Of a stretch of 10,163 nt of DNA, positions 1,578 through 4,981 are shown piece by piece. This stretch comes from a bacterium (GTDB taxonomy: Bacteria; Armatimonadota; Zipacnadia; Zipacnadales; Zipacnadaceae). Each line of letters begins with the position of its first letter. Positions within the stretch are counted from its first letter, which is position 1. A program made the translations under genes and the position numbers. The stretch is from positions 1 to 10,163 of the forward strand of contig JAUVXR010000050.1 of assembly GCA_030603495.1 (NCBI GenBank). Direction: 5' to 3'. The notes under the pieces were generated by a model, which was given only the letters and a program-made list of their open reading frames with translations, searched no databases and was not told the DNA's origin.

Positions 1578-1640
1578 ATGCGTTCGCCGAAGATAGTGAT
1601 AGGGTTAGCCGTAAGCGCACGGGGGATATTGGCTGAATGA
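1578..1640 (+). CDS. Possible 20-aa leader ORF overlapping the R-M start
   Basis: An ATG at 1578 is preceded by GAAGGG at a 7-base spacing and opens a 20-codon frame (MRSPKIVIGL then AVSARGILAE). Its TGA overlaps the ATG of the restriction-modification gene in an ATGA arrangement. The R-M ATG itself has only a distant G-run (1620-1625) as a ribosome binding site, so translation could be coupled through this leader. The peptide matches no family known to me, and a chance frame of this size is quite possible. It is too short to be a controller (C) protein. Confidence 0.3.
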   Translation: MRSPKIVIGLAVSARGILAE

Positions 1641-4570
1641 CTGAAACTGCCGATCCACATCGCCTCACTGCACCCGACGAGACCCGCCGCGTTATAACGG
1701 GCCTGGTGGAACGCTACCGCCGCGACGCCGATGAATACGCGCGTGGGTCGTACAAAGAGGCTCAAGTGCGGGAGGAGTTCATTAACCCGTTCTTTGAGGC
1801 GCTGGGCTGGGACCTCGCCAATAAGGCTGGCTATGCCGAGCCCTACAAGGAAGTTATCCACGAGGACACCATCAAGGTTGGCGGAGCGACCAAGGCGCCG
1901 GATTACTGCTTCCGCATTGGCGGGCAGCGCAAGTTCTTCCTCGAGGCGAAGAAGCCCTCGGTGCATATCAAGACCGATCCGTCTCCGGCTTATCAACTGC
2001 GCCGCTACGGCTGGAGTGCGAAGCTCCCCCTGTCCATTCTGACTGACTTTGAGGAGTTCGCGGTTTACGATTGCAGCAAGCGGCCCCAGGAGGCGGACGG
2101 GCCCGCTGTTGCCCGAGTTGATTTCGTCACCTATGACCAGTACCTCGACCGCCTCGACGATATCTACTCGATCTTCGCCAAGGAGGCGATACTGAAGGGC
2201 TCGTTCGACCGCTATGCCGAGGGCACCCGCCGTAAGCGGGGCACCACCGAGGTTGATGCGGAGTTCCTCGGGGAGATTGAAGCCTGGCGGGAAATGCTGG
2301 CCAAGGACATCGCCCGCCATAACCCGGGCCTGTCGGTGCACGAGCTGAACTTCGCCGTCCAGACCACCATTGACCGCATTCTATTTTTCCGCATTGCCGA
2401 GGACCGGGGCGTCGAGCCGTACGGGCGGTTGCGCGACCTGCTCGACGGCGCGGGCCTCTACCCGCGCTTGTGCCAGCTCTACCAGCAGGCCGACACCAAG
2501 TACAACGCCGGGCTGTTTGACTTCAGCGCCGGCGGCGATCAGTTGACGCGCGACCTGGAGGTCTCCGACAAGGCCCTGGACGCTATTTTGGCCCAGCTTT
2601 ATTACCCGCAGTGCCCCTACGAGTTCTCGGTCATCGGCGCCGACATTCTCGGCGCGGTCTACGAGCAGTTTCTAGGGAAGGTCATCCGCCTGACCAAGGG
2701 GCACCAGGCGAAAGTCGAGGATAAGCCCGAGGTCAAGAAGGCCGGCGGCGTCTACTACACGCCCACCTACATCGTGGACTACATCGTCGAGCATACTGTC
2801 GGCGAGGCGCTGCAGGAAGCGAAAACGCCGGAGGCCGCCGGTAAGCTGCGTATCCTCGACCCAGCCTGCGGCTCCGGGTCGTTTCTGCTGGGGGCTTACC
2901 AGCGCCTACTGGACTGGCATCTGGACTACTACACGGGCCACAGCCCCAAGAAGTATGCCCGCGGCAAGCAGCCGACGCTGGTGCAGGTGCGCGCGGAGGA
3001 GTGGCGGCTGTCGAGCTTCGAGCGCAAGCGCATCCTGCAGGGCAACATCTACGGTGTGGACATTGACTCGCAGGCCGTGGAGGTCACCAAGCTCAACCTG
3101 CTGCTCAAGTGCCTGGAGGGGGCGACCGAGCAGACGCTGGCGCAGCAGTTGCAGATCTTCCACGAGCCGGCGCTGCCCAACCTGGCAGACAATATCAAGT
3201 GCGGCAACAGCCTCATCGGGCCGGACTATTATGAGGGCAGGCAGCTTGCACTGCTTGACGAAGACGAGTCCCGCCGCGTCAACGCTTTTGACTGGGAGGC
3301 GGAGTTTGCTGATATTATGGCCGCCGGCGGCTTCGATTGTGTGATCGGCAATCCGCCGTATGGAATCGTGTTTGACGACGAGACGAAGGTTTATATAGAA
3401 GAACTATACCAAACATTTGCGCGAAATAATGACACATATGTCGCCTTTTCAGAAAAGGCTGTTGAATTACTGAAGCCTGGAGGCTTGTTTGGCTACATCA
3501 TACCTAGTACATTTCTCTTGGGACCATACTTTGATGATTTAAAACGACACATTATTGAGAAGGCAGAAGTTCGGCTAATTGTCGACTTTGGTATGAACCA
3601 AGTGTTTACCCAGCCCAATGTCTTCACTGTATTGCTGTTCTTGCAGCGTAAGACTTCATCGAACGGGCGACAGGAGCGCGAGCCCGTTTTTCTAAAGGTA
3701 ACAGAGTCCCCTGCGTTCCCTCATGGACTACAACGCCAAACGATTAACAGGGATCGGCTTCGGACGCTCCGATGGGTACCCGCTGATGTACTTGTTGAGA
3801 AGTTTGAGGCCGGTGAGATGGTGCTTGATGACGTTGCCTGGGTTAAGGATGTGGGATTGAATTACTGGACTAAAGGGCGAGGTAAGAAGAGAGGCGGCTC
3901 GATTGCCGATAGAGTGCTCTATGAGGGTCTACGAGAACACGCTCCAGATAGGCCATACTTGAAAGGGAAAGATGTAGCTCGATACTCGCTGACTCCTGGT
4001 GACCACTGGCTTCGTCACAACTATAACCAACTGCTTGATCCCAAAGTTGATACTTTCCGCTTCAGTCCAGAATTTATAGAACGGGAGAAAATCGTATATC
4101 GCCAAACGGCCGATAGAATTATCGCCACCATTGATCCCGATGGCTTCTTGATAAACAAAACATTGCACAGCGTTGTTTTGAAAGACGAGTGCCAAGGGGA
4201 ATTTAACCTCCGCTATTTGCTGGGCCTTCTCAATTCACGTTTCTTGACATATGTATATCGAGCGCGGACACGGGAAGAAGGTAGAACATTCGCCCAGGTA
4301 AAGGTTTTCAGGATTAAACAGCTCCCCATTCGCACGATTGACTTTGATGACCCGGCGGATGTGGCGCGGCATACCAAGATGGTGGAACTGGTGGAGACGA
4401 TGCTGGAGCTGCACAAGCGGCTGGCCCAGGTCAAGACGCCGCGCAGCCGCGAGCGCCTCCAGCGCCAAATAGCCGCCACCGACCAGGCGATTGATGAGCT
4501 GGTCTATGAACTGTACGAGCTGACCGACGAGGAGATTGCGATAGTCGAGGATAGTGCGAAGCAAAGGTAG
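1637..4570 (+). CDS. Single-chain restriction-modification enzyme (type IIG/IIL-like, Eco57I-type methylase)
   Basis: This 977-residue protein probably both cuts DNA and methylates adenine at N6 using S-adenosylmethionine, as in type IIG/IIL systems. Residues 20-150 form an HsdR-like nuclease domain with a PD-(D/E)XK site: D89 in APDY, then E103 and K105 in FFLEAKK. A helical connector follows. The methylase has motif X-like GGVYYTPTYIVDYIV (about 370-384), motif I LDPACGSGSF (407-416), an acidic VDID after beta-2 (474-477) and catalytic NPPY (572-575). Residues about 660-895 form the target-recognition part, including YLKGKDVARYSL and the LLGLLNSRF segment typical of TaqI-like specificity domains. 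The last 75 residues are helical, possibly coiled coil. All key catalytic residues are present, so the gene looks intact. The start is at the ATGA overlap with a small leader frame. The block from NPPY to about residue 900 has much lower GC than both flanks. Recognition sequence cannot be told from this. Confidence 0.93.
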   Translation: MTETADPHRLTAPDETRRVITGLVERYRRDADEYARGSYKEAQVREEFINPFFEALGWDLANKAGYAEPYKEVIHEDTIKVGGATKAPDYCFRIGGQRKFFLEAKKPSVHIKTDPSPAYQLRRYGWSAKLPLSILTDFEEFAVYDCSKRPQEADGPAVARVDFVTYDQYLDRLDDIYSIFAKEAILKGSFDRYAEGTRRKRGTTEVDAEFLGEIEAWREMLAKDIARHNPGLSVHELNFAVQTTIDRILFFRIAEDRGVEPYGRLRDLLDGAGLYPRLCQLYQQADTKYNAGLFDFSAGGDQLTRDLEVSDKALDAILAQLYYPQCPYEFSVIGADILGAVYEQFLGKVIRLTKGHQAKVEDKPEVKKAGGVYYTPTYIVDYIVEHTVGEALQEAKTPEAAGKLRILDPACGSGSFLLGAYQRLLDWHLDYYTGHSPKKYARGKQPTLVQVRAEEWRLSSFERKRILQGNIYGVDIDSQAVEVTKLNLLLKCLEGATEQTLAQQLQIFHEPALPNLADNIKCGNSLIGPDYYEGRQLALLDEDESRRVNAFDWEAEFADIMAAGGFDCVIGNPPYGIVFDDETKVYIEELYQTFARNNDTYVAFSEKAVELLKPGGLFGYIIPSTFLLGPYFDDLKRHIIEKAEVRLIVDFGMNQVFTQPNVFTVLLFLQRKTSSNGRQEREPVFLKVTESPAFPHGLQRQTINRDRLRTLRWVPADVLVEKFEAGEMVLDDVAWVKDVGLNYWTKGRGKKRGGSIADRVLYEGLREHAPDRPYLKGKDVARYSLTPGDHWLRHNYNQLLDPKVDTFRFSPEFIEREKIVYRQTADRIIATIDPDGFLINKTLHSVVLKDECQGEFNLRYLLGLLNSRFLTYVYRARTREEGRTFAQVKVFRIKQLPIRTIDFDDPADVARHTKMVELVETMLELHKRLAQVKTPRSRERLQRQIAATDQAIDELVYELYELTDEEIAIVEDSAKQR
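3360..4335 (+). other. Low-GC block inside the R-M gene (probable specificity-region exchange)
   Basis: Hand counts of single 60-base lines give 60% GC at 2881, 63% at 3001 and 65% at 4381. Inside the block they give 42% at 3421, 40% at 3541, 48% at 4081 and 43% at 4141. Codon choice changes at the same places: G/C-ending codons dominate outside, A/T-ending ones inside. The left border coincides with the conserved NPPY codons and the right border with the start of the helical C-terminus. The block carries the late methylase motifs and the whole target-recognition region. I infer replacement by homologous recombination within conserved flanks. Confidence 0.65.
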
Positions 4571-4579
4571 GATGCGATA

Positions 4580-4981
4580 ATGCTTACTTGGATCTTAGCA
4601 CTTGCTAATGGGATAATCTTTGTGTTTTCAATTTGGTTCAGTCGTTTCCACGACTTATCAGAGTTGTGGCATTGGCTTCTCATGGCTATCGCGGCGGTAC
4701 TGGTCATCTGCATTACAGCGGCAAACCAAGCAAAGCTAGACAAGAACATGAGATATGTGATAGATAGTCTAAGCCGCGTGGAGACACGACAGCGAAAGGA
4801 TATCACTCAGCGTCTACGGGACTACTACGAAAGAATCGTCAATGGAGTAGGCGAAGCCGAAATTGTCGATCCGCTGAGTGCAGTGGCAACAGGCGGATAC
4901 TTTCCGTCCTCTGGCCGCGTGCGCGATCTTATTCCGAAGCCGCAATTTGGCGAACCGAATGACGACGCGAGGCCCAATTGA
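4580..4981 (+). CDS. Small two-span membrane protein downstream of the R-M gene
   Basis: This 133-residue protein is of unknown function. Two hydrophobic segments are clear: residues about 3-20 (ILALANGIIFVFSIWF) and about 31-48 (WLLMAIAAVLVICITAA). Next comes a charged helical stretch (about 50-90, with VETRQRKDITQRLRDYYERI), then a flexible polar tail. By the positive-inside rule the long C-terminal part is probably cytoplasmic. The ATG lies 9 bases after the R-M stop, and the likely ribosome binding site AGGTAGG overlaps that stop, so the two genes are probably translated together. Its first half is low in GC (42% over 4621-4680), like the exchanged block of the R-M gene, which hints at shared acquisition. 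It may be an accessory of the R-M system or a passenger. I recognise no family. Confidence 0.62.
   Translation: MLTWILALANGIIFVFSIWFSRFHDLSELWHWLLMAIAAVLVICITAANQAKLDKNMRYVIDSLSRVETRQRKDITQRLRDYYERIVNGVGEAEIVDPLSAVATGGYFPSSGRVRDLIPKPQFGEPNDDARPN

What the first reader, a model, noticed from the sequence alone, without database searches (positions are those of the whole stretch)
3360..4335. Specificity block of the R-M gene looks replaced
A block of about 1 kb with 40-48% GC lies within a gene whose flanks are 60-65% by hand count. Its left edge falls on the conserved NPPY codons and its right edge at the helical C-terminus. It holds exactly the part that sets DNA recognition. This fits modular exchange of target recognition at conserved borders, and here the exchanged unit would include the late methylase motifs as well as the recognition domain.
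Basis: partly seen in the sequence, partly recalled or inferred. Interest (0 to 1): 0.6.

Follow-up and report, generated by a model that had tools for sequence, protein, structure and literature searches.

The report
Swappable specificity cassette in restriction enzyme
The middle third of this bacterial DNA-cutting-and-marking enzyme, which decides which DNA sequence it recognises, has been swapped as one block while the rest of the protein stayed nearly constant, a known kind of evolution seen here very cleanly in an enzyme class where I found no earlier description of this particular block.

Summary
Window gene 1637-4570 encodes a 977-aa single-chain Type IIG-like restriction-modification protein. 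Bases 3359-4321 are 46% GC (third codon positions 47%) inside a 62% GC gene (82%). An unsupervised GC change-point puts the left edge at 3359, the Tyr codon of NPPY. The proposed test came out positive. Three copies in a same-genus genome are 86-87% identical to this protein in the left frame and 92-96% in the right frame, but 24-27% between NPP|Y and LPIR. Frame and block trees reject each other (AU p 5e-73 and 2e-41). The late methylase motifs travel with the recognition domain, not with the frame. The GC dip is shared by the exchanging clade (31/31 members for total GC, 30/31 at four-fold sites), is due to codon choice, and is absent from a related plasmid subfamily that does not exchange. 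So the dip marks the exchanging module; alone it does not date this gene's last swap. Fossils fit homologous recombination through the frame. En-bloc recognition-domain exchange is known for Type I and Type III systems; this is a new variant in single-chain Type IIG enzymes.

The parts
1637..4570 (+). single-chain Type IIG-like restriction-modification gene, 977 aa
   Evidence: ORF; Pfam HSDR_N, N6_Mtase, Eco57I, TaqI_C; PADLOC REase_MTase_IIG PDLC03604 E 1.7e-201
1637..3358 (+). left constant frame: nuclease, helical spacer and methylase motifs up to NPP of motif IV (res 1-574)
   Evidence: 78-87% identical to homologues of the same genus and family and one of the same order; invariant columns
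1898..1951 (+). PD-X13-EAK nuclease site (P88, D89, E103, K105)
   Evidence: direct reading of the translation; E103 and K105 at least 90% conserved in the 32-sequence alignment; HSDR_N match
2858..2878 (+). methylase motif I DPACGSG (res 408-414)
   Evidence: invariant or nearly invariant columns
3350..3361 (+). methylase motif IV NPPY; left border of exchange lies between NPP and Y
3359..4321 (+). exchanged specificity unit: end of motif IV, late methylase motifs and recognition domain (res 575-895), 46.2% GC
3953..4330 (+). TaqI-like C-terminal specificity domain (target recognition)
4322..4333 (+). LPIR, right border of exchange (res 896-899)
4322..4567 (+). right constant frame, C-terminal helical hairpin (helices 906-931, 935-959, 964-975)
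   Evidence: 92-96% protein identity to same-genus copies; AlphaFold model
4448..4550 (+). 3' tail whose copies lie elsewhere in related genomes without the gene or downstream of other copies

Best explanation
The gene is a single-chain Type IIG-like restriction-modification enzyme built as a constant frame plus one replaceable specificity unit. The frame is the nuclease, spacer and first half of the methylase up to NPP of motif IV, plus the C-terminal helical hairpin. The unit is the last residue of motif IV, the late methylase motifs and the TaqI-like recognition domain (3359-4321). Shown: the unit is inherited independently of the frame in this clade. Inferred: foreign units enter by homologous recombination through the conserved frame on both sides, and each exchange changes cutting and self-protecting methylation together because both activities share the one unit. 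The likely structural reason that the unit starts inside motif IV is that the loop just after motif IV touches target bases, as in MmeI (motif IV 481-484; base contacts Lys487, Ser488, Lys489; PMC4833311). The AT-rich codon usage probably reflects repeated arrival from AT-rich sources with incomplete amelioration, while the recombining frame stays GC-rich.
For: Sharp step in identity at NPP|Y and LPIR in same-genome and same-genus copies, also at DNA level: G006 copies are mostly 80-100% identical in the left frame, about 20-58% in the unit, then mostly 84-98% again. Frame and unit trees reject each other, AU p 5e-73 and 2e-41. The same unit (64%) sits in frames 67% alike (G011 L047, G012 L040) while L047's closer frame relative L022 (83%) carries an unrelated unit (27%). 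Tandem copies in Parabeggiatoa L029 have 90% identical frames and 21% units; gene conversion appears to end about 50 residues before NPPY. L028 keeps a truncated first unit followed by a second left border 96% identical over 201 bp and a complete second unit. Late methylase part tracks the recognition domain, not the frame. GC dip: unit below frame in 31/31 exchanging members, four-fold sites lower in 30/31, amino-acid composition contributes about zero; control plasmid subfamily co-evolves and has no dip. Intact nuclease and methylase motifs and a reasonable model with BpuSI, MmeI and CamA matches.
Against: No donor of this gene's unit was found; best relatives are 30-33% identical, so the last swap here is inferred from relatives. 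The borders coincide with the ends of conserved motifs, so they show where conservation ends as well as where chimeras join. The control subfamily is small and phylogenetically clustered (9 members, two groups). Twenty-eight E. coli genomes with a homologue from that control subfamily all carry one unit, so exchange is not universal or fast. That the unit sets specificity and that the enzyme is active were not tested.
Confidence: 0.9

Rival explanations
1. The middle block diverged in place by relaxed or diversifying selection, without any transfer of a block.
For: Recognition domains evolve fast and the borders coincide with conserved motifs.
Against: DNA identity drops within a few codons, from mostly 80-98% to about 38%, between copies in one genome; unit lengths vary 290-380 aa; unit tree crosses the frame tree decisively; distant frames share 64% identical units; third-position GC differs; the control subfamily shows frame and unit diverging together.
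Confidence: 0.04
2. The GC dip is an ancestral or amino-acid-driven property of any recognition domain and says nothing about exchange.
For: The dip is present in nearly all homologues of this clade, in hosts with frame GC of 37-69%.
Against: Amino-acid composition explains about 0 points of it in the median; it sits in codon choice. Homologues with the same domains that do not exchange lack it (Mann-Whitney p 2e-5). In the Methanosarcinales copy a 31% GC unit sits in a 63% GC frame and contig.
Confidence: 0.08
3. A phase-variable shufflon: silent unit cassettes in the genome are switched into the expression locus.
For: Some relatives carry several copies (three in G006, tandem pair in L029) that could supply units.
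Confidence: 0.04
4. The chimera is a metagenome assembly artefact.
For: The host genome is fragmented (62 contigs) and the window is a whole 10-kb contig.
Against: The reading frame is intact across both borders with all motifs in place; the same architecture recurs in about 30 independent genomes from several phyla and two domains.
Confidence: 0.01

Closest known systems
Type III Mod (modA of Neisseria and Haemophilus), DNA recognition domain exchanged en bloc (PMC3311624)
   Same: One variable block between conserved flanks in a methylase gene, moved en bloc by recombination in the flanks, with lower GC than the flanks (modA12: 28% against 40%).
   Different: Type III Mod is a separate subunit; phase-variable repeats are part of that system. 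Here restriction and modification are one chain and the unit carries the late catalytic motifs as well as the recognition domain; no phase-variation feature was found.
[quoted passage not shown]
   Same: Specificity changes by recombination at conserved sequences around recognition domains.
   Different: There the recognition domains lie in a separate S subunit with two repeats and can change position. Here there is one unit at one position inside a single-chain enzyme.
Type IIG/IIL enzymes BpuSI and MmeI (PMC3874165, PMC4833311)
   Same: Nuclease, helical spacer, gamma methylase, recognition domain, C-terminal helices in one chain; fold matches.
   Different: MmeI-family specificity is described as changing through contact residues within alignable recognition domains; here whole units are replaced.
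Thermus TspDTI/TspGWI family (PMC3384240)
   Same: Same domain order and a PD-X13-EXK nuclease motif as reported for TspGWI; members with different specificity.
   Different: The three TspDTI-type enzymes are similar over essentially the whole length; no block replacement is described in the passages read.

Membership tests
Type IIG restriction-modification enzyme | N-terminal PD-(D/E)XK nuclease and gamma-class methylase fused in one chain | tested here: met
   HSDR_N, N6_Mtase, Eco57I, TaqI_C on one 977-aa ORF; P88-D89-X13-E103-A-K105 read from sequence; motif I (408) before motif IV (572) before the recognition domain
Type IIG restriction-modification enzyme | match to curated Type IIG profiles over frame | tested here: met
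   PDLC03604 REase_MTase_IIG E 1.7e-201
Type IIG restriction-modification enzyme | cleavage at a fixed distance from the site, methylation of the same site | not testable with these tools
   needs biochemistry or methylome data
BREX PglX / DISARM DrmMI methylases | full-length profile match | tested here: not met
   BREX-1 89 bits against cut-off 500, BREX-2 86 against 400; no BREX or DISARM gene is apparent in the window
Type IIL (MmeI) family | MmeI methylase domain | tested here: inconclusive
   PF20473 40.9 bits, cut-off 27, but Eco57I and TaqI_C score higher
En-bloc recognition-domain exchange | variable block with sharp borders between conserved flanks | tested here: met
En-bloc recognition-domain exchange | phylogenetic incongruence of block and flanks | tested here: met
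   AU tests
En-bloc recognition-domain exchange | same block found in different flanks | tested here: met
   L047/L040 units 64% with frames 67%, while L047/L022 frames 83% with units 27%; not shown for this window's own unit
En-bloc recognition-domain exchange | exchange changes the sequence recognised | not testable with these tools
   needs methylome or hybrid enzymes
Phase-variable shufflon | silent cassettes and flanking repeats in the genome | tested here: not met

The most novel reading that the evidence does not exclude
A family-wide pool of about 1-kb AT-rich specificity cassettes (late methylase half plus recognition domain) circulates across phyla and between bacteria and archaea, plugging into one conserved Type IIG frame at NPP and LPIR. 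Each replacement leaves a short 3' tail of the former gene downstream as a footprint.
Probability: 0.35. Interest if true: 0.65.

Novelty: new variant of a known kind. Interest (0 to 1): 0.47.

Why it matters
It locates a natural swap junction inside the catalytic motif of single-chain restriction-modification enzymes and shows that the functional specificity unit is larger than the annotated recognition domain. That suggests where to cut when making hybrid enzymes, and it gives a sequence set (constant frame, many units, several copies per genome) in which the specificity code could be read from methylomes. It also shows that a GC dip can mark a recurrently exchanged module rather than a single recent import.

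Tried and rejected
Donor search for the window's unit in plasmids, viral contigs and 291 genomes of the phylum: nothing above 33% identity. Donor search for the very AT-rich Methanosarcinales unit L032: plasmids about 25%, viral contigs none. Population test in E. coli: 28 of 5426 genomes carry a homologue, all with one unit. Frame in phage records: no match; a few uncultivated viral contigs carry it. Shufflon: no silent cassettes or repeats. GC-biased gene conversion as the reason for the GC-rich frame: frame GC3 exceeds the host gene mean in all 8 sampled genomes of the phylum, but not in L024, L029 or L092, so this stays a suggestion.

Full report
Observation. The gene at 1637-4570 codes for a 977-aa protein. 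Pfam gives HSDR_N (residues 39-151), N6_Mtase and Eco57I (336-657) and TaqI_C (773-898); PADLOC gives Type IIG restriction enzyme-methyltransferase at 1.7e-201. The low-GC block is real: 3359-4321 has 46.2% GC and 47.0% GC3, against 62.3% and 82.1% to its left and 60.6% and 78.0% to its right. Codon shuffling never reproduced it in 2000 trials, and a likelihood fit with two free breakpoints returned 3359-4348, so that the left edge is the Tyr codon of NPPY without any knowledge of protein motifs. No other sampled gene of at least 350 aa in the same genome (25 genes) shows so deep a drop.

Homologues were collected from 61 related genomes, from public genome contigs, from the whole phylum (291 genomes), and from plasmids and viral contigs. 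A same-genus genome, G006, has three copies. Against the window protein they are 86-87% identical in the left frame, 24-27% in the unit and 92-96% in the right frame. Among themselves the frames are 92-97% identical and the units 21-24%. At DNA level identity is mostly 80-100% up to the codons of GNPP, falls to about 20-58% in 15-codon windows, and returns to mostly 84-98% after LPIR. Likelihood breakpoints fall at residues 575-577 and 895-897 in 14 of 18 exchanging-clade pairs. In the other four the fit found another boundary, or moved one border.

What moves. The unit is larger than the recognition domain: it begins at the fourth residue of motif IV, which itself varies between Tyr and Trp. 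Across 351 pairs of the exchanging clade, the late methylase part (577-680) correlates with the recognition domain (r 0.52) and not with the left frame (r -0.05 and 0.03) or right frame (-0.02). The two halves of the left frame correlate at 0.83, and the left frame with the right frame at 0.63 to 0.79. A second, weaker border exists near residue 675 in one class of units, whose late methylase parts stay mostly 45-90% alike while recognition domains are mostly 15-50%. In the predicted structure (mean pLDDT 80, low in parts of the recognition domain) the left border is the end of strand 566-571 and the right border precedes the C-terminal helical hairpin. Foldseek matches are CamA, BrxX, BseCI, BpuSI, MmeI and DrdV. 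In MmeI, motif IV is 481-484 and the methylase-domain base contacts are Lys487, Ser488 and Lys489 (PMC4833311). A unit starting inside motif IV would therefore carry the base-contacting loop with it; for this protein that is inference.

Evidence that it is exchange. Frame and unit trees of 19 members reject each other (AU p 5e-73 and 2e-41). Units of G011 and G012 are 64% alike in frames 67% alike, while G011's closer frame relative G008 (83%) has a 27% unit. Fossils point to recombination through the frame. Parabeggiatoa (L029) carries two tandem copies whose frames are 90% identical and units 21%, with the high-identity tract ending about 50 residues before NPPY. Longimicrobiaceae L028 has frame, truncated unit, a second left border 96% identical over 201 bp, a complete second unit and right frame. 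So crossovers probably occur in the long shared frame, and the junction at NPP|Y is kept by conservation rather than remade each time.

The GC dip reinterpreted. It is present in 31 of 31 exchanging members in total GC and 30 of 31 at four-fold sites, with amino-acid composition contributing about zero in the median. In nine plasmid homologues (Rhizobiales and Xanthomonas, Acinetobacter, Psychrobacter, E. coli) there is no dip (four-fold difference +1.2 in the median, p 2e-5 against the others). In the closely related pairs among them frame and unit diverge together, for example 93/94% and 82/78%. It is two-sided in the sampled genomes of this phylum, because the frame is more GC-rich than host genes, but not in all other hosts. 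A lower GC in an exchanged recognition block has been reported for modA12 (28% against 40%, PMC3311624).

Comparison with known systems. Recognition-domain exchange is established for Type I S subunits and Type IIG S subunits (PMC3077401), and Type III Mod (PMC3311624). A 2020 paper names Type I, III and IIG as types whose domains move (PMC7379913). I found no description in the held library of en-bloc exchange from motif IV to the C-terminal helices in single-chain Type IIG enzymes; subscription papers are mostly missing from that library, so the novelty claim is limited. The principle is known, the enzyme class and the unit are the new part.

Uncertain points. The donor of this unit is unknown, its recognition sequence is unknown, and activity is not shown. 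The 3' tails described under Noticed in passing look like remains of earlier gene copies and fit the model, but their short length is not explained.

Noticed in passing
L035, L036, L037, L047, L044, L025, L008, L100 downstream of the intact gene (0.4-2.7 kb): Short 3' tails of the same gene (last 16-54 codons, 48-165 bp) lie on the same strand downstream of 8 of 29 exchanging-clade genes with downstream sequence and of none of 9 control plasmid genes; none reaches into a unit.
   Followed up: partly
G001:C167:1363-1462 (L051), G004:C63:46967-47065 (L052), G010:C342:10472 (L141): At the site next to the DUF72 gene, two same-genus genomes lack the gene but keep its end: G004 has about 50 bp of the 5' end joined to about 100 bp of the 3' end, G001 only the 3' end. 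A different genus (G010) has a similar both-ends scar.
   Followed up: partly
L038 2871-2968, L039 2985-3066, L051 1363-1462, L052 2468-2566, L037 5847, L035 1021, L036 6403: Seven tails with different left flanks begin at one of two nearby points of the gene, around CGCCTCCAGCGCC or CGCCACCGACCAGG. Recurrent breakpoints are unexplained; the clustering was not tested statistically.
   Followed up: partly
window 4580-4981 (+): A 133-aa ORF without Pfam match follows the gene, 49.6% GC; related DNA follows the G011 copy, which has a different unit, so it does not travel with the unit.
   Followed up: partly
L032 6864-7862: A Methanosarcinales archaeon carries the same frame at 63% GC with a 31% GC unit, the strongest composition break seen.
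   Followed up: partly
L107, L108, L109, L111, L112, L114, L097: Plasmid homologues of the non-exchanging subfamily sit beside a second N-6 DNA methylase gene, with a ribbon-helix-helix or CopG gene upstream in the Rhizobiales and Xanthomonas plasmids; the window gene has no such companion in the 10-kb contig.
   Followed up: no
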